DNA from: Mucilaginibacter pedocola
GTDB lineage: Bacteria > Bacteroidota > Bacteroidia > Sphingobacteriales > Sphingobacteriaceae
Length of the DNA stretch: 64,000 nucleotides
Reading direction: 5' to 3'
Assembly: GCF_002013915.1 (NCBI RefSeq)
Contig: NZ_MBTF01000038.1
Location: forward strand, 62,001-126,000
The first letter of the stretch is position 1; every line of letters starts with the position of its first letter. The translations under genes were made by a program, and so were the position numbers. Below, piece by piece: positions 33,671 through 46,708 of this stretch. The notes beneath the pieces are model-generated. The model was not told the origin of the DNA. It did no database searches and was given only the letters and a program-made list of their open reading frames with translations.

Positions 33671-33744
33671 TATCAAAGGGTTGATGTGCCGGCCCTAATC
33701 AAGGAATCTGCCTTGCTCCAAAATACACATTAAAATATCAACAT

Positions 33745-33778
33745 AAGGCTGCACCATCATCTATGGCGCAGCCTTTTT
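33745..33778 (+). terminator. intrinsic terminator of the hybrid sensor gene
   Basis: AAGGCTGC (33745-33752) pairs perfectly with GCAGCCTT (33768-33775) and a T-run follows to 33778. It lies 75 bp after the sensor stop codon. The remaining stretch to 34131 holds no gene except a promoter candidate. Confidence 0.8.
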
Positions 33779-34007
33779 ACTTTGGCAAATACTGAGTTTT
33801 TATCGCTCGCCATGGTAATTTATCATTCTCCATAACCCTGATTATCAACCTTGACGACTAAGATATGATAGGCGAATAGGAAAATATTCAGCATTAGGCG
33901 CAAATTTTGGCAAGTAGCATAAGCTTAAGCGAACTCAAGTATCGCGCATTCTCCCCTCTACATATTATATCATATTTTCCACAAAAAATATCTATCAATA
34001 AAACCCG

Positions 34008-34038
34008 GTTGTTTTACAAACATATTGCTGTAGATTTA
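34008..34038 (+). promoter_or_regulatory. candidate promoter of the cysteine-rich peptide operon
   Basis: GTTG at 34008-34011, a 19-bp spacer, and TAGATTTA at 34031-34038 match the Bacteroidota pattern (-33 TTTG, -7 TAnnTTTG) with one mismatch in each element. Transcription would begin near 34045, leaving a leader of about 86 nt before the first gene. Confidence 0.45.
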
Positions 34039-34131
34039 AAAAGTTAACCAAAACCAACAGCGCAATACGCTCTGCAGTTAATTATAAACTTATAAACAAA
34101 TTTTCCTAAACCTTAACAACATCTACTTAAT

Positions 34132-35154
34132 ATGGGTGACAATTCCGCCTATGGCAAACCTTTTGTCGAAAAACAACTCCAAACCTTAGCAAACCATCTA
34201 TTATTAACATCAGAAAACATACCGGAAATTGGATTATACAAAGGAAAAACCGGCATTTGCCTTTTCTTTTACCTGTATTCATCCTATTCAAAAACTGAAT
34301 TTTATGATAATTCAGGCGGCGAGCTGCTCGAACTGATATTTGAGCAGGTACCTGCCGAAACCGATATCAGTTTTGCTACCGGACTGGCGGGCCTTGGCTG
34401 GGCAATAGAATTTTTAAGCCGGAGAAAATTAATTGATGCCGATACCGACGAGGTATTGGCCGATATAGATGAAGCACTGCTTGAGTGCTATACCGGGAAA
34501 AGTTCAACTGCTGATGATGATTCGATGTTGCAAATAGTACCGTATTTATTGATGCGGGAAAGCAGCAAACCGCGCGTTGAAGATGATGCCTGTTTAAAAA
34601 TACTCCGGCAGTTAAAATGGCTGGTTGATTTGCAAATTCAGTCGATATTCCAAAACAGGGATGCTAATTATCAGCATCGCCTATCGATAGATAACTTGCT
34701 GAATGTTTTATACCATTTAATCGCAAACCCAAATGCCGGCGGTAATAATTACGCATTCCTGTTACCCACACTAAATGCAGTAACGCAAATTAATAACGAC
34801 AACCTGCTTGCAGAATTTACAAAACTTACACACCTGTTACTGGCACTGCAAACCAGGGTGAGCGATCCTCAAATCCACCATCAATTCCAATTAATAATTC
34901 AACTGCTTAGAAACCAAACCGCGGCAATAAGTAACCATCATGGGTTTGCAGCTGAAGTAAACTCTATAGCGAAAAAAACTTCAATTGACCTAATATACCA
35001 ACTACCACTGCACCTACAGCCTGAGCACAATGGCCCGTATCAATTAAGCGACGACACATTTTGGCACGGCATAGTTGAAAACATAAATAAGCATAAACCC
35101 GGGCTTGACGGGCTTGCCGGTTTGGGGCTACATATTTTAAACCGGGCATCATAA
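34132..35154 (+). CDS. LanC-like protein lacking zinc ligands
   Basis: A 340-aa helical protein with the GxxG-type toroid repeats of LanC cyclases: GLYKGKTGICLFFYL, FATGLAGLGWAIEFL and, at the C-terminus, GLDGLAGLGLHIL. The three zinc ligands of active LanC (Cys, then Cys-His-Gly) are not visible, so it probably cannot form thioether rings by the standard mechanism. It is the first gene of the peptide operon, 18 bp before the VKOR fusion. It may bind the precursor leader or act as a chaperone. The family call is moderate; the role is unknown. Confidence 0.6.
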   Translation: MGDNSAYGKPFVEKQLQTLANHLLLTSENIPEIGLYKGKTGICLFFYLYSSYSKTEFYDNSGGELLELIFEQVPAETDISFATGLAGLGWAIEFLSRRKLIDADTDEVLADIDEALLECYTGKSSTADDDSMLQIVPYLLMRESSKPRVEDDACLKILRQLKWLVDLQIQSIFQNRDANYQHRLSIDNLLNVLYHLIANPNAGGNNYAFLLPTLNAVTQINNDNLLAEFTKLTHLLLALQTRVSDPQIHHQFQLIIQLLRNQTAAISNHHGFAAEVNSIAKKTSIDLIYQLPLHLQPEHNGPYQLSDDTFWHGIVENINKHKPGLDGLAGLGLHILNRAS

Positions 35155-35172
35155 CCTTATCATCATCACCCT

Positions 35173-36780
35173 ATGTCTGTAGAAAAAAAGATAATAAAGA
35201 TAATCAGAAAGTTTATAGGTTACCACAATGTGCCTGTTACAACTGCTAATATTAGCGACGTTTTACTTACCCATCCCGATTTCCCCGATCTGGTTAGCAT
35301 TTCTGATGCTTTCGATGAATGGAAGATAGACCACGCAACGTTAAAGGTAAAACCCGAGCAGCTTGTTGATATTGAAACGCCATTTATAGCAAGCCTAACC
35401 GACCCCGACGACTACCTGGCCATAGTTAAAGAGGTTAGCAACGATTATGTGATTTACGAAGCAGGGAACGGCCAAGACCTTAAAATTGATTTTGTGGGTT
35501 TCCTGGAGCGATGGAGAGGTGTTGTTATAGCAGTATCGCCGGATGAAAATTCGGGCGAGGCCGATTACCCGGCCAAGTACAAGGCTCAAAAAATAAATGC
35601 TTACAAGTGGGGGCTTTCCGGCTTAATTTTAATTACGCTATTAGCAGTTTTAATAAAGCTAAGGCTTGATACCACAGAGGCCCGGTACCTGGCGCCACTG
35701 CTTACCGGGCTGCTGTTTGCAGGCCTTGGTGTAATACTGAGCGCGCTTACCTATAGTTACGATAAAGGCTCGGCGCCCGAGTTTGTAAAAGAAATATGCG
35801 GCGCCGTATCCGGCAAAGGCTGTAAGGATGTTATTGCATCAAATGCATCAAAAATAATTGGCAACATAACTTTATCAGAAATAGGCCTCGCCTATTTTTT
35901 CGGGGTATTTATACTGCTGTTGCTGCCAACGGCAAATACCATAACCGCGCTGAATATTGCAGCCCTGCTTAATTTGTGCACACTGCCATTTACTGTATTC
36001 TCTATATACTACCAGGCCAAAGTAATGAAGGCAATGTGTGTGCTTTGCATATGCGTGCAGGTATTGTTATGGGTGCAATTCTGTATAGGTTACAGCTATG
36101 GTTTATTATTTATAGGCAACTACGATATTACCGGCCTTGCCGCGGCTTTGGTCAGCTTCAGTATCCCTGCATTCGCGCTAATGCTTTTACGTTCGTTTTT
36201 TGATAAGCAAGAGCAGGTGGGTACTTTAAAAAAAGCGCTTAAGCGTTTTAATAAAAACCCCGAAGTGTTTAACGGTATGCTTAAAAACGGGCGCAGTATT
36301 GATACCGGCAGCGGCGGTAGTTTTATAATAGGCAACCCCGATGCCGAAATAACGCTTACCATAGGCACAAACCTTTTTTGCGCGCCCTGCGCAAACTTAC
36401 ACCCGGTAATACATTCACTTATCAATAAACACGAAAGCCTGGTAAAAATTCAGTATGTGTTTCTCATCCCGCCCGATGATGCCGAACAATACGCCCTGGT
36501 AGATTATCTGCTGGCTATTTACAACCAACACGGGCCATCTGCTGCAGCATATGCGCTTAATTATTGGTTTGAAACTTTTGACCTACCCGGCCTAAAACAG
36601 CAAATACCCACGCAAACAGATGCTTATAAAACACAGAAGTTTATAAACGAGCATAGGGATATCTGCAATCTTTTTGAAATAGAACATAGCCCTGCAGTTT
36701 TTATTAACGGGCAAACCTATCCCTGGATATTTAAACTGAAAGAAATAGCTACCTGGATACCCTACTTAGAGCAGTACTAA
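35173..36780 (+). CDS. C39-like / VKOR / thioredoxin fusion, disulfide-forming enzyme
   Basis: A 535-aa membrane protein with three parts. Residues 1-125 resemble a C39 peptidase fold but contain no cysteine, so they cannot cleave; they may bind a leader peptide. Residues about 145-340 are a VKOR domain with membrane helices, the loop cysteines C209 and C217, and the CVLC centre at 289-292. Residues about 375-535 are a DsbA/thioredoxin-like domain with CAPC at 403-406 and SPAVFING near the cis-proline site. It would oxidise cysteines in the exported proteins and pass electrons to quinone. It directly precedes the cysteine-rich precursor genes. Confidence 0.85.
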   Translation: MSVEKKIIKIIRKFIGYHNVPVTTANISDVLLTHPDFPDLVSISDAFDEWKIDHATLKVKPEQLVDIETPFIASLTDPDDYLAIVKEVSNDYVIYEAGNGQDLKIDFVGFLERWRGVVIAVSPDENSGEADYPAKYKAQKINAYKWGLSGLILITLLAVLIKLRLDTTEARYLAPLLTGLLFAGLGVILSALTYSYDKGSAPEFVKEICGAVSGKGCKDVIASNASKIIGNITLSEIGLAYFFGVFILLLLPTANTITALNIAALLNLCTLPFTVFSIYYQAKVMKAMCVLCICVQVLLWVQFCIGYSYGLLFIGNYDITGLAAALVSFSIPAFALMLLRSFFDKQEQVGTLKKALKRFNKNPEVFNGMLKNGRSIDTGSGGSFIIGNPDAEITLTIGTNLFCAPCANLHPVIHSLINKHESLVKIQYVFLIPPDDAEQYALVDYLLAIYNQHGPSAAAYALNYWFETFDLPGLKQQIPTQTDAYKTQKFINEHRDICNLFEIEHSPAVFINGQTYPWIFKLKEIATWIPYLEQY

Positions 36781-36813
36781 CCATCTATTATATTAATTAC
36801 TAAAACAAAGAAG

Positions 36814-37152
36814 ATGAAAACAATTCCTAAATTATCATTGAATGCATTAAAAAAAAATGCCGACAGCATCATGACCAAAGATGAGCTAAGAAGCGTTAAG
36901 GGCGGATTTCAAACCTGCCAAAAAACTCTGCCCGATCCCGGTAGCTACTTTTGTCAAAGCAACCCCGGCCACCCTGACTGCAATCCGAACTTACCAAGAA
37001 CGGTAACCGGTTATTTATCAAATTGCTACAATTCGTCGGGTTCGTATATCGGTACTGCCTGCCATGTTAATGGCCCATGCGGGCAAAATTATGTAAACGT
37101 AACATGCCAATACGCCTACCCATCAAACGGCAGTTCAGGCGCATGTATTTAA
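36814..37152 (+). CDS. double-glycine precursor protein with eight cysteines (copy 1)
   Basis: A 112-aa secreted-protein precursor. Residues 1-31 form a leader ending KGG (KDELRSVKGG), the cleavage signal for C39-peptidase exporters. The remaining 81 residues carry eight cysteines at 35, 47, 56, 71, 83, 89, 98 and 111, enough for four disulfides, with many Ser, Asn, Gly and Tyr residues. It matches no bacteriocin family I recognise. The start has an AG-rich upstream stretch (CAAAGAAG). It is followed by a conserved hairpin and then by a second copy. Its function could be antibacterial, signalling or surface-related. Confidence 0.8.
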   Translation: MKTIPKLSLNALKKNADSIMTKDELRSVKGGFQTCQKTLPDPGSYFCQSNPGHPDCNPNLPRTVTGYLSNCYNSSGSYIGTACHVNGPCGQNYVNVTCQYAYPSNGSSGACI

Positions 37153-37180
37153 GGTAACATTATTTAACTAACGTACTGCT

Positions 37181-37214
37181 AACAATAGTTATCGGTTAGC
37201 CGGTAACTATTGTT
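37181..37214 (+). other. conserved RNA hairpin after precursor gene 1
   Basis: AACAATAGTTATCGG (37181-37195) pairs with CCGGTAACTATTGTT (37200-37214) around TTAG, with a single T-G wobble in 15 pairs. No T-run follows. The equivalent hairpin after copy 2 has different bases but the same pairing, which suggests it works as RNA, for example to protect the precursor transcript or to reduce read-through into the exporter. Confidence 0.7.
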
Positions 37215-37357
37215 CCTACACAACTAAACAACCTCGCTATCAATAATATAAAACAACGCAACTACCTGCTTCCCTTGCTCCAGCGTAGTAGGTTAACAAC
37301 AACAATCCAGGTGAAACAAAGGAAAAAACTACAGGCTACTTGATATTAACACAGCAA

Positions 37358-37442
37358 TGCAATTTTCATTAGCGGGCAAACCTATACATGGGTATTTAAA
37401 CTAAAAAAATTGCGCCCGCATATCCAACCCGGAGCAGTACTA
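37358..37442 (+). pseudogene. decayed copy of the VKOR/thioredoxin gene 3' end
   Basis: The sequence here aligns with 36695-36780: CGGGCAAACCTAT and GAGCAGTACTAA are shared, and the segment between them has many changes and a net loss of 2 bases that breaks the frame. It is a by-product of the tandem duplication and is not translated. The wider gap 37215-37476 holds no other gene. Confidence 0.75.
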
Positions 37443-37476
37443 AACATCTATTATATCAATTACTAAAACAAACCAG

Positions 37477-37818
37477 ATGAAAACAATTTCTAAATTATCA
37501 TTGAATGCATTAAAAAAAAATGCCGACAGCGTAATGACCAAAGATGAGCTGAGAAGCATTAAAGGCGGCTTTCAAACCTGTCAAAAAAACTTACCCGATC
37601 CTTATGGCAATTACTGCCTGTATCAACACCCTTCCGACCCTGATTGCCAGCCAAACATGCCAAGAACCGGCGTGGGTTATTTATCAAATTGCTACACTTC
37701 GTCGGGCTCATACCTCGGCACTGCCTGCCATGTTAATGGCCCATGCGGGCAAAATTACGTAAATGTAACCTGCCAGTACGCATACGGATCAAATAACGTA
37801 TTTGGTTCTTGCATTTAA
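37477..37818 (+). CDS. double-glycine precursor protein with eight cysteines (copy 2)
   Basis: A 113-aa paralogue of the preceding precursor. The leader is the same length (31 aa) and differs at three positions, ending KDELRSIKGG. The mature part of 82 aa keeps all eight cysteines (35, 47, 57, 72, 84, 90, 99, 112). The stretch GTACHVNGPCGQNYVNVTC is identical in both copies, while the region between cysteines 1 and 4 and the last ten residues vary. This pattern suggests a fixed disulfide core with variable loops. Export is by the C39 transporter just downstream. Confidence 0.8.
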   Translation: MKTISKLSLNALKKNADSVMTKDELRSIKGGFQTCQKNLPDPYGNYCLYQHPSDPDCQPNMPRTGVGYLSNCYTSSGSYLGTACHVNGPCGQNYVNVTCQYAYGSNNVFGSCI

Positions 37819-37846
37819 GTACCATTATTAATTAACGTGCTGCTAA

Positions 37847-37876
37847 CAATAATTACCGGCTTGCCGGTAATTATTG
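37847..37876 (+). other. conserved RNA hairpin after precursor gene 2
   Basis: CAATAATTACCGG (37847-37859) pairs perfectly with CCGGTAATTATTG (37864-37876) around CTTG. Compared with the hairpin after copy 1, one G-C pair has become A-T on both sides and one T-G wobble is a C-G pair. No T-run follows. It lies 84 bp before the exporter gene. Confidence 0.7.
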
Positions 37877-37960
37877 CATAACCTGCTCAAATACAAATAA
37901 ATAGCCTCACAGGCAACACTTTACAACCAACAAAACAATCTATCTGAAATACTAAACCGA

Positions 37961-40180
37961 ATGAGTAAGGCATTCCCCATATATAAACAACTTGACGGTA
38001 TGGACTGCGGCCCCACCTGCTTACGAATGATATCGCAACACTATGGGCGTAAATATTCGGCCAGGTTTATAAAAAAGCGTTCAAATATTTCGAAGGGGGG
38101 CACTTCGTTACTTGGAATTAGCGATGCTGCCGAGAATATCGGTTTCAGGACTATTGGGTTAAAACTTGATGCCCAAAGTTTTTACAGCGATGTGCCCCTA
38201 CCCTGCATTGTACATTGGAACTTAGACCATTTTTTAGTTGTACATAATATAACGCCTAAAAAGAACACCGGCGGTAAAGGCTTTGTAATACATGTGGCAG
38301 ACCCTGCTAAAGGCAAAACTAAATACAACGACAAAGAGTTTGAGCACGGCTGGATAAGCACCCTTAAAAACGGCCGCGAAACCGGCCACTGCCTTGTGTT
38401 AGAGCCTACACCCGAATTTTACCGGGCAGAAGACGAGGTTATTGAAAAACGCACCAGTTTGTTTGATATGGCAGCTTACCTGCGGCCATTCAAAAAACTT
38501 ATTGTACAACTCATTTTATGCTTTGTAACGGCAAGCCTGCTGCAATTGTTTTTCCCGATAATCTCGCAATCGATTATAGACAAAGGGGTTAACAAAAATA
38601 ACCTAAACCTGCTTACCCTGTTGTTGATAGCACAGCTTACGTTATCTTTTGGCCAAACATCGGTCACCTACATTCAAAGCTGGATAACTTTACATTTAAC
38701 CACCCGTATTGATATAGCCCTTATAACCGATTTTTTAGCGCGGTTAATGCGTATGCCCCTATCGTTTTTCGACAGCAAACTGGCAGGCGATGTTTTACAG
38801 CGCGTAAACGATAATAACCGCATACAGGGTTTTCTTACATCAACATCAATCAACTTACTTTTTGCAGTAGGCAACTTTATAGTTTTCAGCTGTATAATGC
38901 TGTATTACAACGCATTGATTTTTTTAATATTCATTACCGGGAGTGCCGTTTATGTTGCCTGGATAACTGGTTTTTTAAAATACCGGCGCGATTTAGACAA
39001 CCGGAATTTTGTGCAGGGTGCCGGCTATCAAAACAATATGATAGAAATGATTAGCGGTATGCAGGAAATAAAACTTAACAATTGCGAAAAACAGAAAAGA
39101 TGGCAGTGGGAGCGCATACAGGTTAAACTTTTTAAAATACGCACAAGGGGCCTAATGATAGGGCAATACCAACAGGGAGGCGCATTTTTAATAAATAGCG
39201 CCAAAAACCTATTCATTTCATACTTCACCGCCAGGTCTGTTATCGAGGGGCAATTATCCGTAGGGGTTCTATTTTCAATCCAATACATTATAGGGCAACT
39301 AAACTCCCCTATAGAACAGTTTGTATCGTTTTCTCAATCGTTGCAGGATGCACAAATAAGCCTGGAAAGGCTCAGCGAAGTAAAACACGAAGAAACGGAA
39401 GATAAATTTGATGAGTTTACCATTCACGAACTTCCGGCACAAAAAAATATAACTATAACCGATCTTACCTACAGGTACGAAGGCCCCGCTTCGCCCGCCG
39501 TGCTCGACAATGTAAGTTTAACTATTCCCGAAAACAAGGTAACGGCTATTGTAGGCGTTAGCGGCAGCGGCAAAACCACGCTTTTAAAAATGCTATTGGG
39601 TTTTTATAAACCCGAAAAGGGGCATATTATGGTTGGCGACGCCCCCTTCGAGCACATCAATTGTAAAGTTTGGAGGCAAAATACCGGCACCGTTTTGCAA
39701 GACAGCTTTATTTTTTCTGATACCATAGCTAACAATATAGCCATTAGCGATGAGTCTGTTGACCGGGATAAACTATTGCACGCTGTAACGATGGCTAATA
39801 TTAAAGAATTTATAGAATCGTTGGCCTTACGGTACAATACCCAAATAGGCGCTGCAGGGCATGGTATTAGTCAGGGCCAAAAACAACGCATGCTAATAGC
39901 AAGGGCCATATACAAAAACCCTCAGTTTATATTTCTGGATGAGGCCACAAACTCCTTAGATGCCAATAACGAAAAAGTTATTATGGATAACCTGAATAAG
40001 TTTTTTAAAGGTAAAACGGTAGTTGTGGTAGCACATAGGCTAAGCACCGTAAAAAATGCGGATAAAATTGTGGTGATAGATAAAGGAAAGATAGTAGAAG
40101 AAGGCACTCACGATGAGCTAAGCAACCTAAAGGGCCATTACTATAACCTCGTAAAAAACCAACTCGAATTGGGGAACTGA
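37961..40180 (+). CDS. C39-peptidase ABC exporter (PCAT)
   Basis: A 739-aa inner-membrane exporter that removes double-glycine leaders and transports the mature part. The peptidase domain has catalytic C16 (DGMDCGPTC), H88 (WNLDHFLVVH) and D112 (VADPAKG). The membrane domain spans about 170-450. The ATPase has Walker A GVSGSGKT (530-537), signature ISQGQ (634-638) in place of LSGGQ, Walker B FIFLDE (654-659) and the H-loop VVVAHRLST. It follows the two precursors and is 1 bp from the adaptor gene. The precursors' KGG sites are its likely substrates. Confidence 0.93.
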   Translation: MSKAFPIYKQLDGMDCGPTCLRMISQHYGRKYSARFIKKRSNISKGGTSLLGISDAAENIGFRTIGLKLDAQSFYSDVPLPCIVHWNLDHFLVVHNITPKKNTGGKGFVIHVADPAKGKTKYNDKEFEHGWISTLKNGRETGHCLVLEPTPEFYRAEDEVIEKRTSLFDMAAYLRPFKKLIVQLILCFVTASLLQLFFPIISQSIIDKGVNKNNLNLLTLLLIAQLTLSFGQTSVTYIQSWITLHLTTRIDIALITDFLARLMRMPLSFFDSKLAGDVLQRVNDNNRIQGFLTSTSINLLFAVGNFIVFSCIMLYYNALIFLIFITGSAVYVAWITGFLKYRRDLDNRNFVQGAGYQNNMIEMISGMQEIKLNNCEKQKRWQWERIQVKLFKIRTRGLMIGQYQQGGAFLINSAKNLFISYFTARSVIEGQLSVGVLFSIQYIIGQLNSPIEQFVSFSQSLQDAQISLERLSEVKHEETEDKFDEFTIHELPAQKNITITDLTYRYEGPASPAVLDNVSLTIPENKVTAIVGVSGSGKTTLLKMLLGFYKPEKGHIMVGDAPFEHINCKVWRQNTGTVLQDSFIFSDTIANNIAISDESVDRDKLLHAVTMANIKEFIESLALRYNTQIGAAGHGISQGQKQRMLIARAIYKNPQFIFLDEATNSLDANNEKVIMDNLNKFFKGKTVVVVAHRLSTVKNADKIVVIDKGKIVEEGTHDELSNLKGHYYNLVKNQLELGN

Positions 40181-40181
40181 T

Positions 40182-41174
40182 ATGGAAAACGCCGTGGAAA
40201 ACAACATCGAAATTTACTCGGATGAGGTGCAGGAGCTAATGGAGGCCCCGCCTGCCTTGATCATAAGATATGGCATAACCGGCATTTTGGTTAGCATTTT
40301 AGTATTAATAGCACTAACCTTTTTTATTGATGATAACCGCGACGTGGCTGTAACAATAACGGCTTTGCCCGGCACAGTGCCTGCAACGATAACAACCGCT
40401 GCTAAATATAAAATAATACAGCCTACGGTATTAGAAAACCAGCTGGTACATAAAAACCAGGTGCTCGCCCTAACAGATAATGATACGCTCAACTACGCAT
40501 CAGTTATCAGTATTAAAAATTACACACACCTGCTCGATTCGGCACTGGGGATTGATAAGGTATCTTTTGCGAAATTGCCGGTAATGTTTGGGCTACGGCA
40601 GCTCGGGGGTATGCAACAACCCTTTTTTAATTTACGGTGGCATGTTATACAGGCAAAATACGAAGCGGACCGCAGCCCCGGCTCCTATTACAAACATTTA
40701 GCTACCCTCGAAAAGGCCGTTGATGAATTTAAGCGAAACTTAACGGATTGGGAAAGCACCCACGTTGTAAAATCACCAATAAAAGGGCTGGTTTCTATAG
40801 GCAGATTTTTCACCGCAGCTAATGGCAATACGGGTTTCAGGTTAACAATCAGCCCCGACGATCGGGTTCAAAAAGCGGGCTTCGACTCGTTATTGCTAAC
40901 AACAGCCGTTCCGCTGCCATACGGTAAGGTAATAAGCTTTAAACTGATTGATACAGCAAAAAGTGCCCCGGCAACGCTGTTACAGGGAATGCTGCTACCC
41001 TCCAACAATACCGGCAAAAACTTCCGGGCTTATTTAAAAATGTCAAAACCGCTTGACGCACAAACAGCAGCTATGCTTACCGATAATTTGGGGCCTAATG
41101 CAGTGGTAACTGTACGTAAGGGATCGCTCGGCGAAAAAATATTTCGCGAAGTAATAAACCTTAATAACAAATGA
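40182..41174 (+). CDS. HlyD-like membrane-fusion (adaptor) protein
   Basis: A 330-aa protein with one N-terminal membrane helix (about 27-48, ITGILVSILVLIALTFF) and a periplasmic part. The lipoyl-like halves are recognisable (TITTAAKYKIIQPTVLENQLVHKNQVLAL given by its ends TITTAAKYK and VHKNQVLAL; later VVKSPIKGLVSIGRF). The coiled-coil hairpin between them is short. It would link the exporter to an outer-membrane channel, which is not encoded here. It begins 1 bp after the exporter stop. Confidence 0.75.
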   Translation: MENAVENNIEIYSDEVQELMEAPPALIIRYGITGILVSILVLIALTFFIDDNRDVAVTITALPGTVPATITTAAKYKIIQPTVLENQLVHKNQVLALTDNDTLNYASVISIKNYTHLLDSALGIDKVSFAKLPVMFGLRQLGGMQQPFFNLRWHVIQAKYEADRSPGSYYKHLATLEKAVDEFKRNLTDWESTHVVKSPIKGLVSIGRFFTAANGNTGFRLTISPDDRVQKAGFDSLLLTTAVPLPYGKVISFKLIDTAKSAPATLLQGMLLPSNNTGKNFRAYLKMSKPLDAQTAAMLTDNLGPNAVVTVRKGSLGEKIFREVINLNNK

Positions 41175-41195
41175 TGCACCTTATTTTTTAGTGAT

Positions 41196-43076
41196 ATGGA
41201 TATTTATAACGGCGTAACGGTCATCATGCCAACATACAGGCACCAGGCATTTATACTACGGGCAATAAAAAGTTTGTTGCTGCAAACCTTTACCAATTGG
41301 GAGTTGATAATTATTAATGATGCATCGCCGGATGATACCGAAAGCGTTATTAAGCATCATTTAAATAACCCCCAGATACGATATTACCGCAACAGTGAAA
41401 ATGCAGGCTTAGGGGCTTGCTTAAATATGGGCATAAAACTGGCATCGCACAACCTTATCGCCTACCTCCCGTCCGACGATTTTTATTACACCCAACACCT
41501 GCAAAACCTTATAGATAAAATAAACGCAGTGCCCAATTGCGTGCTGGCTTATACAGGCATCAAATATCATACTTACAGCTCTGTAACAAGTAATAAAACC
41601 TTGCTTGCCAATGGGCAGGTACCGGGCTTTTATTTACAACTGGCGCAGGTAGCCCACATTAAAAACCAGGAACGCTGGGTGGAACGCGATGAACTGGTAA
41701 CCCACGACCTGTTTACTATGTACTGGAGCAAATTATTGGATAAGGGGATTTTTGCACCAACAAGTAAAGTTACGTGCGAATGGTGCGCGCATCCGGAACA
41801 GCGGCATAAAATAATAAACCAGAAACTGGGCGGCGGCTTGTGTTATTACCGCAGTTACTACCAGGTAAAAGGCCCCATAAGGTTTAAATTACCCACAGGG
41901 ACCATACATAACGAAGAGGAAATTTACACCACCCCTGCGGCATCTGTACCTTTATCGGGTTTAAAAATACTGCTTGTTGGCGAATTGGCCTACAACCCCG
42001 ACCGTATTTTGGCATTTGAAGAGCAGGGGCATAAATTATACGGACTATGGTTGGACAAACCCATGTTCTCAAACTTTGTTGGCCCGCTGCCATTTGGAAA
42101 CGTAACCGACATTAGCCCTGCAAATTGGGTTGAAGAGGTAAAAAAAATAAAGCCCGATATTATTTACGCCCTATTAAATTCAGAAACGGTTCCGTTTGCC
42201 TACCGGGTGTTAACCGAAAACCCGGATATACCGTTTGTATGGCATTTTAAAGAAGGGCCCACGTTTTGCCAAATTGCCGGCCACCAAAACCAATTGATGG
42301 CTCTTTACAGCCTGTCAGACGGGCAGATATTTATAAATGACGAGGTGAAAGCCTGGTTTGGTAATTACCTCAACCTAAATGATGATACCACGCTTATACT
42401 CGACGGCGACCTCCCGAAGAATAATTATTTCAAGGGAACGCGTTCGGCCTTATTATCTGATTTTGATGGCCAAATACATACCGTACTACCCGGCCGCCCA
42501 ATGGGCATTGTGCCCGATGATATAGCAGTTTTGGCGGGGCAAAAAATACATGTGCATTTTTATGGTAACTACCAGGATGTATGGAAAGATTGGGTTAACG
42601 ATTGCATGCAAGCCGCCCCGGGCTATTTTCATGTTCATGAAAATTGTGCACCTGATAACTGGGTGAGCGAGTTTTCTAAATACAACGCCGGCTGGCTGCA
42701 TCATTTCAAAAGCCAAAACAATGGCGAGTTAATGCAAACCGTGTGGGACGATTTAAACCTGCCGGCCCGCATTACAACACTTGCCGCGGCCGGGCTGCCC
42801 ATGCTTCAGTTTAACAACAACGGGCACATAGTAGCTTCGCAGGCGCTGTTGCAAAGGTATGATATAGGTGTTTTGTACGATAGCTTTGAGCATGCCGCGC
42901 AGCTACTAACAGATAGTGCATTGATGCGCCGACTGGCAAACAATGTATGGCACCACCGCGATGAGTTTTCGTTTGACCACCATGTACCGGGCCTTATCGC
43001 ATTCTTCAATAAAATAATAGCCGGCAAGCAAAGTAACAAGGCTTTACATCATACTTATGCAAATGGCAGCTACTAA
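41196..43076 (+). CDS. two-domain glycosyltransferase (GT2 plus GT-B-like)
   Basis: A 626-aa cytosolic enzyme. Residues 1-245 are a GT2-type GT-A domain (VTVIMPTYRHQAFI, IINDASPDD, LPSDDFYY as the metal-binding DxD equivalent). Residues about 255-610 look like a GT-B-type glycosyltransferase (LKILLVGELAYNPD, then TLAAAGLPMLQFNNNG near the donor site). It starts 21 bp after the adaptor gene and overlaps UDP-galactopyranose mutase by 20 bp, so it belongs to the same transcript. It could add one or two sugars to the precursor proteins, as GT2 enzymes do in glycocin clusters, or build a separate glycan. The acceptor is not known. Confidence 0.75.
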   Translation: MDIYNGVTVIMPTYRHQAFILRAIKSLLLQTFTNWELIIINDASPDDTESVIKHHLNNPQIRYYRNSENAGLGACLNMGIKLASHNLIAYLPSDDFYYTQHLQNLIDKINAVPNCVLAYTGIKYHTYSSVTSNKTLLANGQVPGFYLQLAQVAHIKNQERWVERDELVTHDLFTMYWSKLLDKGIFAPTSKVTCEWCAHPEQRHKIINQKLGGGLCYYRSYYQVKGPIRFKLPTGTIHNEEEIYTTPAASVPLSGLKILLVGELAYNPDRILAFEEQGHKLYGLWLDKPMFSNFVGPLPFGNVTDISPANWVEEVKKIKPDIIYALLNSETVPFAYRVLTENPDIPFVWHFKEGPTFCQIAGHQNQLMALYSLSDGQIFINDEVKAWFGNYLNLNDDTTLILDGDLPKNNYFKGTRSALLSDFDGQIHTVLPGRPMGIVPDDIAVLAGQKIHVHFYGNYQDVWKDWVNDCMQAAPGYFHVHENCAPDNWVSEFSKYNAGWLHHFKSQNNGELMQTVWDDLNLPARITTLAAAGLPMLQFNNNGHIVASQALLQRYDIGVLYDSFEHAAQLLTDSALMRRLANNVWHHRDEFSFDHHVPGLIAFFNKIIAGKQSNKALHHTYANGSY

Positions 43077-44199
43077 CCCTCATTACGATTACCTGATAGT
43101 GGGGTCGGGCTTATTTGGGGCCGTGTTTGCATATGAAGCAACCCGGGCCGGTAAAAAATGCCTGGTGATTGATAAGCGCAATCACCTTGGCGGGAACGTA
43201 TACTGCGAAAACATAGCCGATATAAATGTGCATGTTTATGGCCCGCATATTTTTCATACCAATAGCAAACGCATTTGGGACTATGTAAATCAATTTACCA
43301 CGTTTAACAGGTTCACCAATAGCCCGCTGGCTAACTATTATGGCGAGTTGTTTAACCTGCCCATAAACATGAATACATTTTACCAGTTTTGGAAAATTAC
43401 TTCGCCAACGGAGGCCAGGCAAAAAATTAGCGATCAAATAAGTAAACTTCCGTTTAAAAAAGCCGGCAACTTACAAGAGCAGGCATTGCTAATGGTAGGG
43501 CCCGAAATTTATGAAAAACTGATAAGGCATTATACCGAAAAACAATGGGGAAGGGATGCTACACGGCTGCCTGCTTCCATCATAAAAAGATTGCCCGTAA
43601 GGTATAATTACGACAATTGCTATTTCGACGACACCTACCAGGGCGTGCCTGTAGGCGGCTACAACAAACTCGTAGCCAAACTATTGGCCGGCATCGACTT
43701 CAAAACAGGCGTTGATTTTAACACCAACAGGTATGAACTTACCGCGCTTGCCAAAAAAGTAATTTACACCGGTGCCATTGATGCCTATTTTGATCATTCG
43801 CACGGGCATTTAGAATACCGCAGCCTGCAGTTTAAAACTGAAGTGTTGGATATGGAAAACTTCCAGGGAAATGCGGTGGTTAATTACTGCGACCCCAAAA
43901 GTAAATTCACCCGGATTGTAGAGCACAAACATTTTGAGTTTGGCAGGCAAAGTAAAACCGTTATAACCCGCGAGTATCCGGTAATGGCCGATAAAAACGT
44001 TGAGCCCTACTACCCTATTAACGATGACCGCAACAATGCCATTTTAAAAAAATACCAAACAATGGCTGCGCAAAACCATAATGTTGTTTTTGGCGGCAGG
44101 CTTGCCGAATACAAATATTACGATATGCACCAGGTAATTGCATCGGCGCTAAAAGTGTGCAACCGCGAGTTATATACCGCCTTTGAAGTCGAAGTTTAA
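43057..44199 (+). CDS. glf: UDP-galactopyranose mutase
   Basis: A 380-aa flavoenzyme that converts UDP-galactopyranose to UDP-galactofuranose. It has the FAD-binding start YLIVGSGLFGAVFA, then CLVIDKRNHLGGN, HVYGPHIFHTN and later NYCDPKSKFTRIVEHKHF, all typical of Glf; the length is usual. It overlaps the glycosyltransferase gene by 20 bp, so its product is the likely sugar donor for that enzyme. A second start at 43063 is possible. This is the last gene of the peptide operon and converges on the rhamnosidase gene. Confidence 0.93.
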   Translation: MQMAATNPHYDYLIVGSGLFGAVFAYEATRAGKKCLVIDKRNHLGGNVYCENIADINVHVYGPHIFHTNSKRIWDYVNQFTTFNRFTNSPLANYYGELFNLPINMNTFYQFWKITSPTEARQKISDQISKLPFKKAGNLQEQALLMVGPEIYEKLIRHYTEKQWGRDATRLPASIIKRLPVRYNYDNCYFDDTYQGVPVGGYNKLVAKLLAGIDFKTGVDFNTNRYELTALAKKVIYTGAIDAYFDHSHGHLEYRSLQFKTEVLDMENFQGNAVVNYCDPKSKFTRIVEHKHFEFGRQSKTVITREYPVMADKNVEPYYPINDDRNNAILKKYQTMAAQNHNVVFGGRLAEYKYYDMHQVIASALKVCNRELYTAFEVEV

Positions 44200-44281
44200 A
44201 CAGCTTTAGTTTAACATTTCAAAAAAATCAATTCTCTATAAACCAACAGTTTATATATTCCCTACCTAAAAGAAGCGCGTG

Positions 44282-46708
44282 CTACATTTCACAATCAAAC
44301 AGATAAACACCAGCCTTTATGGTTAACACGGTATCATTGTTTTCCGAGTTATGCAAACCATAGGCAGATTTACTTTGTACCATTTTGCCATTTACTCTTA
44401 CCGTTTTTCGTTTTGTTGTTGGCAAATAAACGGTTGCGGAGGTTCCGGTTGGTACATTAAGCTTCAACGTAAAATGCCTTGCGCCTGTTTTATGCCATTC
44501 GGCAGCAATATTACCCAAAACGGTGCTCACGGTGCCTTTGGCCCATTGCAGATCACCGATAACAGGTTTAACATTGACTGTTTTCCAGCCATCGCCGGTA
44601 GGCTCTATCCCCACTATCTTTTCGGTTAACAAGGCCGTAGGCCCCGACGACCAGGCGTGCGAAGTTGAGCCCCAATCAAGGTCCCAGCCCTCGTGCCATG
44701 CACCGTTGAAAGATGATAGTTTCATTTGTGCACCCCAGTTTTTGCGCATATAGTCAAGCGCCCACTGCTCCTGCCCGTGGGCGAACATTGCCTTTAGCAC
44801 CCGATAGGCAAATGATTGTTCGCTGGCTTTGCCTGCTGCGGTTATTACGTTTGTCATGCTGCTTTCTTTTGCCTTATCGGCCAAGCCGTATTCCATAGCG
44901 TAAACCTGCGATTGCTGCTGAATTTTGGCTCCCCCGTAACTATCCAAATAAGCCCCATCCTTTGCCGACCATAGGTAGGTATTGATCCCTTCTTTAATTT
45001 TTGCTGCCTGCTGCCTCCATTCTTCGGCTTGTTTAGGGTCGTGGCCAAAATCGGCCGCCATTTCTGCCGCGGCGTTAAGGGCGCCGTAATACAGGCAATT
45101 GGTACCGGTTATAATTTTCTTTTGCTCAATGGGGTAAGTGCTGGGCCAATCTAAAACTATCCAGCCGGGTAAGTTGGCCAGCAAGCCCGTTTTAGCGTCA
45201 ATAAACTGGCGGTAATAAGCCATGGCCTTCTTGAGGATGGGGTAAAGCGCTTCAATGCGCTCGTCGCGGCCGTAGTACAGGAAGTACTCGCGCATCATCA
45301 GCGCCCACTCCAGTTGATAATCCACCAAATAAACCGAACTGCCGGGCTGCATAAAATAATCCGTTGGGTAGCGGCTGCGCACAGCACCATCATCGCGCCA
45401 GCGCTGCGACTGCGCCCCCGAAAGCAGGTTGTATGCCGACAACAACCTTGAACTTTTGCCAAAAGCATAATTGCCGAATAGCTGCATATACCGCGAATCG
45501 CCGGCAATGTATTGCGTATGCTCTCGCCAAGGGTCCTGGTAAGTATCTATCGAATTGATGCGCATGGTATGGCGGCCAACTTCCCAAAACTTATTCAGCA
45601 GTGTATCCGAACAGGCAAAGGTGCTCTCCATCTCATAATCGTAACAGGCGAACTCGGCGTCTACATTTACCACCTCAACATCCTTATTGGCATCTATGGA
45701 AAAATACCTGAACCCGCTCCAGGTATACGGCCGCCAGCTTTGTAGCCCTTTGCGAGTGATGTAGCGTTCCGAATGGTCGCTGCTAACCCGAAGCAAGGGT
45801 GCACCATCTTTATCCAACCGCTCTCCCGTCCCTATCTCTAACTCAACACCCTCTGTTTTTGAGTTGATGGTAAATTGCGGGTAGCCCGCTATCTCCACAC
45901 CAAAGTCGTAAACCAGTTTATTCCCGCTTCGCCATTGCTTTACCGGTTTTACAATTTTTCGGCTGAGGCGCGGGCGTTCAATTACGGTAATACCATTCCA
46001 TGGCGCAACGGGCGGCACACCTATTATAGTGGCGTTCTCCCAAGCAGCATCGTTGAAAGCTGGGCTTTCCCAATTTTGCGGCCACAGCCGTGCGTCGAAC
46101 TTTTCTAAAAAACCTATCAGGTGGGCGTTGGTATCTCTAAAGGCAGTTTGGGTATCCCATGCTTTGGCCTGTGTAACTTTCCAGGTGTTGTCGCTCAAAA
46201 TATCTATCGACTTATCAGGGTAGCTCAGTTTACACTGAAAAAAGAACCCGCCGCGCGCATTCATCTGCGAGTGCAGCCCTACCCCGAAGTTTTGCACAAC
46301 AGCAGTTATGGTGTTGTCGCCTTTCTTCAGGTAAGCAGCAATGTCGAATTTATCGTAATTCTGGTATTCAGGGTCGCTGTTTACCGGGCAACGTTCGAAA
46401 AGCTTGCCGTTGATATAAACATCGGCATAAGCAAAGGCAGATATATAGGCTATGGCACTGGTGGGAAGCCTATCCAACTTAAAGGCTTTTCGCGCCAGCA
46501 AATAATAATTGCGCGGGTTAGGCTCTCCCGAATCCCATATCCATTGCGCTAATGGCTTCACGCCATCAAGCGTTTTTGTGGTTACCGAGATATAAGCACT
46601 TTTGCCCCATCGATATTTTGACGAAGCGGTTTGGCCAAAAGCGGCTATGTTAAAACACAATAACACGGCAAGAGTTATGTTTAATGGCAGGTATAGGTTC
46701 TTTCTCAT
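44282..46708 (-). CDS. secreted GH78 alpha-L-rhamnosidase
   Basis: An 808-aa secreted enzyme (signal peptide ending near AAFGQ). N-terminal beta-sandwich domains include AFAYADVYINGK, the carbohydrate-binding part typical of family 78. The (alpha/alpha)6 catalytic domain carries IDTYQDPWREHTQYIAGD with the acidic residues around the general acid, and the C-terminal segment HEGWDLDWGSTSHAWSSGPT is characteristic. It removes terminal L-rhamnose from plant glycans or glycosides. It is divergent from the AraC regulator, its likely controller, and near a SusC/SusD pair. Confidence 0.88.
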   Translation of the reverse strand: MRKNLYLPLNITLAVLLCFNIAAFGQTASSKYRWGKSAYISVTTKTLDGVKPLAQWIWDSGEPNPRNYYLLARKAFKLDRLPTSAIAYISAFAYADVYINGKLFERCPVNSDPEYQNYDKFDIAAYLKKGDNTITAVVQNFGVGLHSQMNARGGFFFQCKLSYPDKSIDILSDNTWKVTQAKAWDTQTAFRDTNAHLIGFLEKFDARLWPQNWESPAFNDAAWENATIIGVPPVAPWNGITVIERPRLSRKIVKPVKQWRSGNKLVYDFGVEIAGYPQFTINSKTEGVELEIGTGERLDKDGAPLLRVSSDHSERYITRKGLQSWRPYTWSGFRYFSIDANKDVEVVNVDAEFACYDYEMESTFACSDTLLNKFWEVGRHTMRINSIDTYQDPWREHTQYIAGDSRYMQLFGNYAFGKSSRLLSAYNLLSGAQSQRWRDDGAVRSRYPTDYFMQPGSSVYLVDYQLEWALMMREYFLYYGRDERIEALYPILKKAMAYYRQFIDAKTGLLANLPGWIVLDWPSTYPIEQKKIITGTNCLYYGALNAAAEMAADFGHDPKQAEEWRQQAAKIKEGINTYLWSAKDGAYLDSYGGAKIQQQSQVYAMEYGLADKAKESSMTNVITAAGKASEQSFAYRVLKAMFAHGQEQWALDYMRKNWGAQMKLSSFNGAWHEGWDLDWGSTSHAWSSGPTALLTEKIVGIEPTGDGWKTVNVKPVIGDLQWAKGTVSTVLGNIAAEWHKTGARHFTLKLNVPTGTSATVYLPTTKRKTVRVNGKMVQSKSAYGLHNSENNDTVLTIKAGVYLFDCEM

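What the first reader, a model, noticed from the sequence alone, without database searches (positions are those of the whole stretch)
34132..44199. Possible new system for making and exporting disulfide-rich, perhaps glycosylated, proteins
Eight same-strand genes in close order encode two double-glycine precursors with eight cysteines, a VKOR-thioredoxin oxidase, a C39 exporter, an adaptor, a LanC-like protein, a two-domain glycosyltransferase and UDP-galactopyranose mutase. The logic resembles glycocin clusters (GT2 enzyme, oxidoreductase, C39 exporter). The mature parts are about 81 residues with eight cysteines, larger than known glycocins, and the galactofuranose donor enzyme is unexpected. 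I know of no described family with this combination.
Basis: partly seen in the sequence, partly recalled or inferred. Interest (0 to 1): 0.85.

Follow-up and report, generated by a model that had tools for sequence, protein, structure and literature searches.

The report
Export operon for likely sugar-tagged miniproteins
A Bacteroidota bacterium carries an operon that probably attaches sugar to two small cysteine-rich proteins, folds them with disulfide bonds and ships them out; the same kind of enzyme set recurs with very different cargo proteins in other Bacteroidota, which would make it a new variant of a known way to make secreted glycopeptides.

Summary
The eight genes are real, co-directional and closely packed. 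The two precursors are a tandem duplication under purifying selection (dN/dS 0.19). They have no convincing relative in 398 other family genomes, but the machinery recurs. A distinct two-domain glycosyltransferase (GT) clade sits, across Bacteroidota, with double-glycine (GG) leader cargo, C39-ABC exporter, HlyD, LanC-like proteins and UDP-galactopyranose mutase (GLF). Leave-one-out leader hits: 15 of 28 GT loci with exporter or LanC-like gene, 0 of 31 with neither, 0 of 31 controls. GLF lies at 13 of 18 exporter loci; by coordinates it is the only GLF found in 11 of those 13 genomes. VKOR goes with cysteine-rich cargo (6 of 6 loci against 2 of 11). The LanC-like protein lacks the zinc motifs and the operon has no dehydratase or radical-SAM match, so a lanthipeptide or rSAM RiPP is unlikely. 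Best reading: glycosylation in the cytosol, here probably with galactofuranose, then GG cleavage, export and oxidation. The chemistry is untested; some sister genomes have no GLF at all. It works like a glycocin system but its GT is not glycocin-type by sequence.

The parts
34132..35154 (+). LanC-like protein (340 aa) without zinc motifs; probable GT partner or precursor-handling protein
   Evidence: PF05147 over residues 34-121; no CHG or WCxG motif; relatives start within 20 nt of the end of the GT gene in 13 of 18 other LanC-bearing GT loci
35173..36780 (+). Degenerate C39-like domain + VKOR + thioredoxin oxidase (535 aa), predicted periplasmic disulfide former
   Evidence: PF03412, PF07884, PF13462; CVLC at 289 and CAPC at 403; weak match to solved VKOR-Trx 4nv2/3kp9, E 0.002-0.006
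36814..37152 (+). Precursor preA1: 31-aa GG leader, 81-aa core with 8 Cys
   Evidence: purifying selection between the two copies
37340..37472 (+). Decayed duplicate of the VKOR 3' end and following spacer, relic of the tandem duplication that gave preA2
   Evidence: 136-column local alignment with window 36674-36809
37477..37818 (+). Precursor preA2: 31-aa GG leader, 82-aa core with 8 Cys
   Evidence: 79% identical to preA1
37961..40180 (+). C39 peptidase-ABC exporter (PCAT, 739 aa): leader cleavage and export
   Evidence: PF03412 1.2e-29, PF00664, PF00005; DCGPTCL, Walker A and ISQGQ motifs
40182..41174 (+). Short divergent HlyD-like membrane-fusion adaptor (330 aa)
   Evidence: position; 26% over 91 aa to an HlyD_3 protein in a sister cluster; no family match of its own
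41196..43076 (+). Two-domain glycosyltransferase (626 aa): GT2 N-terminal domain plus C-terminal region without a family
   Evidence: PF00535 6.6e-27; export-linked clade; C-terminal stretch weakly like Gtf3 glucosyltransferase, E 0.013
43057..44199 (+). UDP-galactopyranose mutase (380 aa), predicted UDP-galactofuranose supply; the only one found in the genome
   Evidence: TIGR00031 386 bits; 1 match at E<=1e-10 in 7.0 Mb; overlaps the GT gene by 20 nt

Best explanation
The operon makes two secreted miniproteins of about 8.6 and 8.9 kDa. Proposed order. (1) The cytosolic two-domain GT, helped by the LanC-like protein, glycosylates Ser/Thr (or Cys) of the unfolded core; GLF supplies UDP-galactofuranose, so the glycan here probably contains Galf. 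(2) The C39-ABC exporter cuts after GG and exports the core with the HlyD-like adaptor, using a TolC from elsewhere in the genome. (3) The VKOR-thioredoxin oxidase, perhaps positioned by its degenerate C39-like domain, forms up to four disulfides at the periplasmic side. (4) The product acts outside the cell, most likely against competitors. Shown here: gene content, purifying selection on the precursors, recurrent linkage of GT, LanC-like, exporter, GLF and GG cargo, association of VKOR with Cys-rich cargo. Inferred: glycosylation itself, sugar identity, order of steps, the TolC, role of the LanC-like protein, biological activity. The operon is one member of a wider Bacteroidota family in which GT and exporter stay and the cargo changes.
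For: GT and GLF overlap by 20 nt. GLF is the only mutase found in the 7.0-Mb genome, although only 45 of 149 genus genomes have a GLF match at E<=1e-20. Of 59 non-redundant GT loci, 18 have a C39-ABC, 10 only a LanC-like gene, 31 neither; leave-one-out GG-leader hits (E<0.05) are 10/18, 5/10, 0/31, and 0/31 in GT2-only control loci; at E<0.01 9/18, 5/10, 0, 0. GLF within view: 9/18, 1/10, 1/31, 0/31; reading on at four exporter loci adds four, so 13 of 18. By coordinates it is the sole GLF found in 11 of those 13 genomes. In the GT tree one branch (SH-aLRT 100) sets off 35 of 62 rows with all 27 export-labelled rows; the other 27 rows have none. VKOR-bearing loci with an identified cargo have at least one core with 5 or more Cys in 6 of 6, against 2 of 11 without VKOR, p 0.0023 (near copies L111 and L072 dropped). 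One of the two exceptions, L085, has three BLAST relatives of a thioredoxin-domain protein. A sister operon (L071/L162) includes a TolC-type gene, others further GTs.
Against: No chemistry was observed. No conserved glycosite can be read, as the cores have no convincing homologues. Five exporter loci (L060, L080, L091, L103, L114) show no GLF in the stretch read; the genome of L060 (G326) and those of L055 (G092) and L094 (G843) have no GLF match at all, so the GT cannot depend on Galf in general. In 3 of the 13 GLF loci (L068, L083, L099) GLF is on the strand opposite to the GT, and in L099 about 13 kb from it. The four extended loci were chosen because a GLF coordinate lay near. 13 of 28 exporter or LanC loci gave no leave-one-out leader hit. 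27 more distant GTs and five Pedobacter GTs inside the clade sit with no exporter, LanC or leader hit, so the GT fold also serves something else. The LanC-like role rests on adjacency; in the window it lies 6 kb from the GT.
Confidence: 0.6

Rival explanations
1. GT and GLF build a surface polysaccharide or glycolipid; they are merely neighbours of an unmodified disulfide-rich bacteriocin-like export operon.
For: GLF usually serves polysaccharides (general knowledge). 31 of 59 GT loci have no exporter, LanC-like gene or leader hit; L056 sits beside GT9 and GT2 genes.
Against: GT and GLF overlap by 20 nt at the end of an operon that begins with LanC-like, VKOR and precursors, and none of the other proteins matches a polysaccharide gene family at cut-off. 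Export-linked GTs fall on one side of a branch, and leader hits occur only where exporter or LanC-like gene is present.
Confidence: 0.2
2. The glycosyltransferase modifies the producer's own surface or target as self-immunity, not the peptide.
For: No separate immunity gene was recognised among the eight proteins.
Against: Unlike cargo (lysozyme, Gly-rich proteins, Cys-rich peptides) goes with the same GT clade, hard to square with one shared target; several loci carry extra GTs, and L071 and L072 an FkbM-type methyltransferase gene, which suggests a glycan built on cargo.
Confidence: 0.07
3. Lanthipeptide-like RiPP: the LanC-like protein forms thioether rings.
For: PF05147 match; cores contain Cys, Ser and Thr.
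Against: No LanB or LanM match at cut-off among the operon proteins; no WCxG or CHG motif in 17 of 18 aligned LanC-like proteins, window included; match confined to the first 121 residues.
Confidence: 0.02
4. Radical-SAM-modified TIGR04149 RiPP, as the leader model's name suggests.
For: Leader resembles TIGR04149; a 2023 survey reports rSAM with LanC and GlyS genes in Bacteroidales (PMC10352776).
Against: Below the model's cut-off in the window; no CxxxCxxC-type ORF within about 10 kb of the window operon, and one in only 2 of 59 GT loci, by a narrow motif scan.
Confidence: 0.02

Closest known systems
Glycocins (sublancin, glycocin F, thermoglycocin; PMC12457901, abstract and passages seen)
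   Same: Ribosomal precursor, dedicated GT, C39-ABC exporter, thioredoxin-like helpers, disulfide-rich product
   Different: GT here is a 626-aa two-domain protein scoring 12.7 bits against the SunS model (cut-off 350); core 81-82 aa; HlyD-like, GLF, LanC-like and VKOR genes present
Bacteroidales RiPP candidate BGC5 and 'rSAM+LanC+GlyS' areas (PMC10352776; section 3.2 read in full; abstract and passages)
   Same: BGC5: two long-core precursors, three LanC-like proteins without Zn motifs, carbohydrate enzymes; L113 (B. faecalis) looks alike in layout
   Different: Paper reports rSAM genes and no transporter in BGC5; the term UDP-galactopyranose does not occur in its text; the parts seen propose no GT/GLF/exporter system. 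Identity of BGC5 with L113 was not tested
Unclassified LanC-like proteins in possible RiPP clusters (a number of 1,392; PMC7268733, one section read in full; passages)
   Same: LanC-like proteins without dehydratase, near ABC transporters and proteases
   Different: No function, GT partner or cargo is proposed in the section read
Bacteroidetocins (PMC6671954, PMC8546649; starts of abstracts in the search listing only)
   Same: Secreted antibacterial peptides of Bacteroidetes
   Different: The listing names no glycosylation; described there as related to class IIa bacteriocins
VKOR-thioredoxin oxidase of solved structures 4nv2 and 3kp9 (host recalled as a cyanobacterium)
   Same: VKOR domain with thioredoxin domain
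   Different: Here preceded by a degenerate C39-like domain and placed in an export operon

Membership tests
Glycocin | Leader-bearing precursor exported and cleaved by a C39-ABC protein | tested here: met
   gene content only: GG leader and C39-ABC in one operon
Glycocin | SunS/GccA-type peptide glycosyltransferase | tested here: not met
   TIGR04195 E 0.041, 12.7 bits, cut-off 350; SunS structure 7msp only E 1.5e-4, over the GT2 part
Glycocin | Thioredoxin-like disulfide helper gene | tested here: met
   VKOR-Trx protein in the operon; not the same type as the Trx-like ThgC/ThgD of PMC12457901
Glycocin | Sugar on Ser/Thr/Cys of the core | not testable with these tools
   needs mass spectrometry
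Lanthipeptide | Dehydratase LanB, or LanM/LanKC/LanL | tested here: not met
   no such match at cut-off among the 8 operon proteins
Lanthipeptide | LanC zinc motifs (Cys, Cys-His) | tested here: not met
   none in the window protein; WCYG and CHG in only 1 of 18 aligned (L083:8503); L103 and L110 have CH dipeptides elsewhere in the alignment
TIGR04149 rSAM-modified RiPP | Leader above model cut-off | tested here: not met
   19.6 and 23.2 bits, cut-off 25; two sister cargos do pass it (L085, L113)
TIGR04149 rSAM-modified RiPP | Radical SAM enzyme nearby | tested here: not met
   no rSAM family among the operon proteins; no motif hit within about 10 kb
GG-leader type I secretion (PCAT) system | C39-ABC with catalytic motifs, adaptor and GG leader | tested here: met
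   adaptor similarity weak; no TolC gene in the operon, one in sister operon L071/L162
UDP-galactopyranose mutase | TIGR00031 equivalog above cut-off | tested here: met
   386 bits, cut-off 304

The most novel reading that the evidence does not exclude
A previously undescribed, widespread Bacteroidota class of secreted GG-leader polypeptides glycosylated in the cytosol (with galactofuranose in many cases) by a dedicated two-domain GT working with a LanC fold that has lost its zinc site, with cargo ranging from Cys-rich miniproteins to a whole lysozyme.
Probability: 0.45. Interest if true: 0.85.

Novelty: new variant of a known kind. Interest (0 to 1): 0.72.

Why it matters
It gives a testable role to LanC-like proteins that a 2020 survey left unclassified, some in possible RiPP clusters (PMC7268733), and that a 2023 survey found without zinc motifs (PMC10352776): partners of a glycosyltransferase rather than cyclases. 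If Galf is on the product it would be unusual: no paper of the library held the words glycosylated, RiPP and galactofuranose together. The pairing of one exporter/GT module with a lysozyme as well as with small Cys-rich peptides suggests a general Gram-negative route for secreting glycosylated antagonists, also in the genus Bacteroides (loci L099, L102, L103).

Tried and rejected
Lanthipeptide and radical-SAM readings were rejected. Searching for precursor homologues led nowhere: 0 of 148 other genus genomes at E<=1e-3; in 398 other family genomes five hits at E 0.002 to 0.008, four with internal stops, the fifth (G048) a match to positions 7-47, mostly leader; I count none as convincing. No meaningful solved relative of the core (best E 0.16, taken as chance). 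A phylum-wide sample of 394 other genomes gave no GT at E<=1e-40, although the genome-contig scan found GTs in many genera; both are samples. A regular-expression scan for a TTG/TAnnTTTG promoter found none in 33601-44300. Literature: titles and abstract starts listed, and the empty, showed no description of the system; only three papers were opened (PMC10352776, PMC7268733, PMC12457901), none read whole, and the library is open PubMed Central papers only.

Caveats on counts. In one search, 68 loci (window, L055-L072, L074-L122) less 7 duplicates and 2 with partial GTs (L118, L119) leave 59. L087 was put by hand into 'neither' although it has a 1019-aa ABC hit, L115 into the exporter group although its exporter is in pieces, and the window was entered as having LanC-like, VKOR, HlyD and GLF. 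L111 is a near copy of L064, L072 a close relative of L071. Views differ: some contigs end near the GT. The leader seeds were picked by a scan of 29 loci, all exporter- or LanC-linked or L090/L095, so the model is tuned to those leaders; most hits were its own seeds, hence the leave-one-out run. The control set is not matched by taxon; two of the 31 controls have a shorter ABC protein (555 and 556 aa) without the other genes. The first VKOR/Cys table (6/6 against 1/11, p 5.7e-4) was set up by hand, required 5% Cys as well and left out L055; one search repeats it with L055 under three rules: 6/6 against 1 or 2 of 11, p 0.0006 to 0.0023 with near copies dropped. L090 (VKOR, 18-Cys ORF) and L100 (VKOR, 9-Cys ORF with leader E 0.11) are outside it.
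Full report
What is there. The eight genes exist as described, all on the + strand between 34132 and 44199. The operon is compact: GT and GLF overlap by 20 nt and C39-ABC and HlyD are 1 nt apart; only the spacers on either side of preA2 exceed 33 nt. The two precursors differ from random ORFs by selection: over 112 codons dS is 0.73 and dN 0.14. The spacer between them holds a decayed copy of the end of the VKOR gene, so the unit 'VKOR end + preA' was duplicated in tandem. Both precursors have 8 cysteines; seven align and the second is shifted by one residue at an indel. The genus label of the window's genome also holds the genome of Mucilaginibacter gossypiicola: G026 and G827 (L077) show the same GLF place and score.

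What the proteins are. The exporter has C39 catalytic motifs. The VKOR protein carries CVLC and CAPC motifs and a C39-like N-terminal domain without any cysteine; by analogy with other degenerate C39-like domains (recalled) it may bind the leader without cutting it. The LanC-like protein matches PF05147 only over residues 34-121 and lacks the zinc motifs; of 18 aligned proteins, window included, only L083:8503 has WCYG and CHG. The GT has a GT2 domain and a long C-terminal region without a Pfam family; a 47-sequence profile weakly matches Gtf3-type glucosyltransferases there (E 0.013). GLF is the only mutase found in the genome. The adaptor is short and divergent.

Is the combination more than chance? 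The precursors have no convincing relative in the genomes sampled. In 59 non-redundant GT loci, 18 have a C39-ABC, 10 more a LanC-like gene, 31 neither. HlyD occurs in 17/18, 0/10, 0/31; GLF in 9/18, 1/10, 1/31; VKOR in 7/18, 1/10, 1/31; GG-leader ORFs by a leave-one-out model in 10/18, 5/10, 0/31. None of these, nor a LanC-like gene, was found in 31 control loci that share only the GT2 domain; two of those have a shorter ABC protein. Reading further at four exporter loci, picked because a GLF coordinate lay near, put GLF beside the cluster in all four, making 13 of 18. By coordinates this copy is the only GLF found in 11 of the 13 genomes; L069 and L100 have a second. In the genus 104 of 149 genomes have no GLF match. 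Against a strict tie: GLF is on the other strand from the GT in L068, L083 and L099, and the genomes of L060, L055 and L094 have no GLF match.

One lineage. In a tree of 62 GTs one branch (SH-aLRT 100, quick method, midpoint root) sets off 35 rows that include all 27 export-labelled rows; the other 27 rows have none, and the label changes five times. GTs of L113, L114, L116 and L122 are cut or split and are not in the tree. The eight unlabelled rows among the 35 are five closely related Pedobacter GTs without visible partners, L107 (contig starts at the GT), L090 (VKOR nearby) and L095 (GLF and DUF6734 nearby). In 13 of 18 LanC-bearing loci the LanC-like gene starts within 20 nt of the end of the GT gene (the window was not counted; L122 could not be measured; in L055 a LanC-like gene overlaps the start of the GT).

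Cargo varies while the machine stays. GG-leader cargo includes Cys-rich peptides (L064, L077, L085, L099, L115, L121), Gly/Ser-rich proteins without Cys (L069, L071, L072), longer proteins (L094, L102, L103, L113) and a phage-type lysozyme behind a GG leader (L060, PF00959 5.3e-42). L095 may add a C39-like peptidase, but its leader is not clear. Where VKOR is present every locus with identified cargo has a core with at least 5 Cys (6 of 6), without VKOR 2 of 11 (L085, L110), p 0.0023. That is the best sequence evidence that VKOR acts on the cargo. Other sister operons add a TolC-type gene (L162, the continuation of L071), DUF6734, Gly_transf_sug, Branch-type and GT4-type transferases and an FkbM methyltransferase, which looks like glycan elaboration.

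How it most likely works. Cytosolic glycosylation of the unfolded core by the GT, with UDP-Galf from GLF, helped by the LanC-like protein; GG cleavage and export by C39-ABC and HlyD with a TolC in trans; oxidation by VKOR-Trx. In the window the two-domain GT is the only transferase in the operon, so if Galf is used here this protein should transfer it. An antagonistic role is inferred from the lysozyme cargo and from the general use of such exporters; no activity was tested.

Compared with what is known. The logic is that of glycocins (GT, C39 exporter, thioredoxin-like helpers; PMC12457901, passages), but the GT is not SunS-like by score, the cores are 81-82 aa, and GLF, LanC-like, VKOR and HlyD are extra. 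A 2023 survey of Bacteroidales saw LanC-like proteins without zinc motifs near carbohydrate enzymes and suggested that they are endoglucanase-like (PMC10352776); a 2020 survey left 1,392 LanC-like proteins unclassified, a number of them in possible new RiPP clusters (PMC7268733). The listings showed no description of this system. So it works like a glycocin pathway, fails the tested GT feature of that family, and is best called a new variant, possibly a new class.

Limits. Everything is genomic linkage. The controls are not matched by taxon, the leader model was tuned on exporter-linked loci, and some group assignments were made by hand (listed under Tried and rejected).

Noticed in passing
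L060:12486-13064: A phage-type lysozyme (PF00959) behind a GG leader beside a C39-ABC exporter and a relative of the window GT: a candidate glycosylated secreted lysozyme.
   Followed up: partly
L095:5023-5895: 290-aa protein with a Peptidase_C39_2 domain beside GT, GLF and DUF6734 genes: possible secreted peptidase cargo; its leader is not clear.
   Followed up: partly
L083:8503-9621: A LanC-like protein with canonical WCYG and CHG motifs lies in the same cluster as one without them; possible dual lanthionine/glycan cluster.
   Followed up: no
L115:3024-5241: The C39-ABC exporter gene of Niabella hibiscisoli is in several frame pieces beside VKOR, GT, GLF and cargo ORFs; broken gene or assembly error.
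   Followed up: no
L055:1-19000: GT, two LanC-like genes and a Ser/Thr-rich GG peptide (86 aa) lie beside a 550-aa ABC protein and a 2144-aa ORF.
   Followed up: no
L063:6208-8558: A Pedobacter GT of the export clade stands without exporter; its neighbours match an M57 metallopeptidase and a pectate lyase.
   Followed up: no
window 30911-33670: Hybrid two-component regulator with a periplasmic sugar-binding domain upstream of the operon; probably belongs to sugar uptake, not to the operon.
   Followed up: no
G000 contigs C23:434030-434422 and C7:41606-41842: Two further C39 peptidase domains in the same genome (frames of 791 and 108 aa), so other GG-leader exporters may exist.
   Followed up: no
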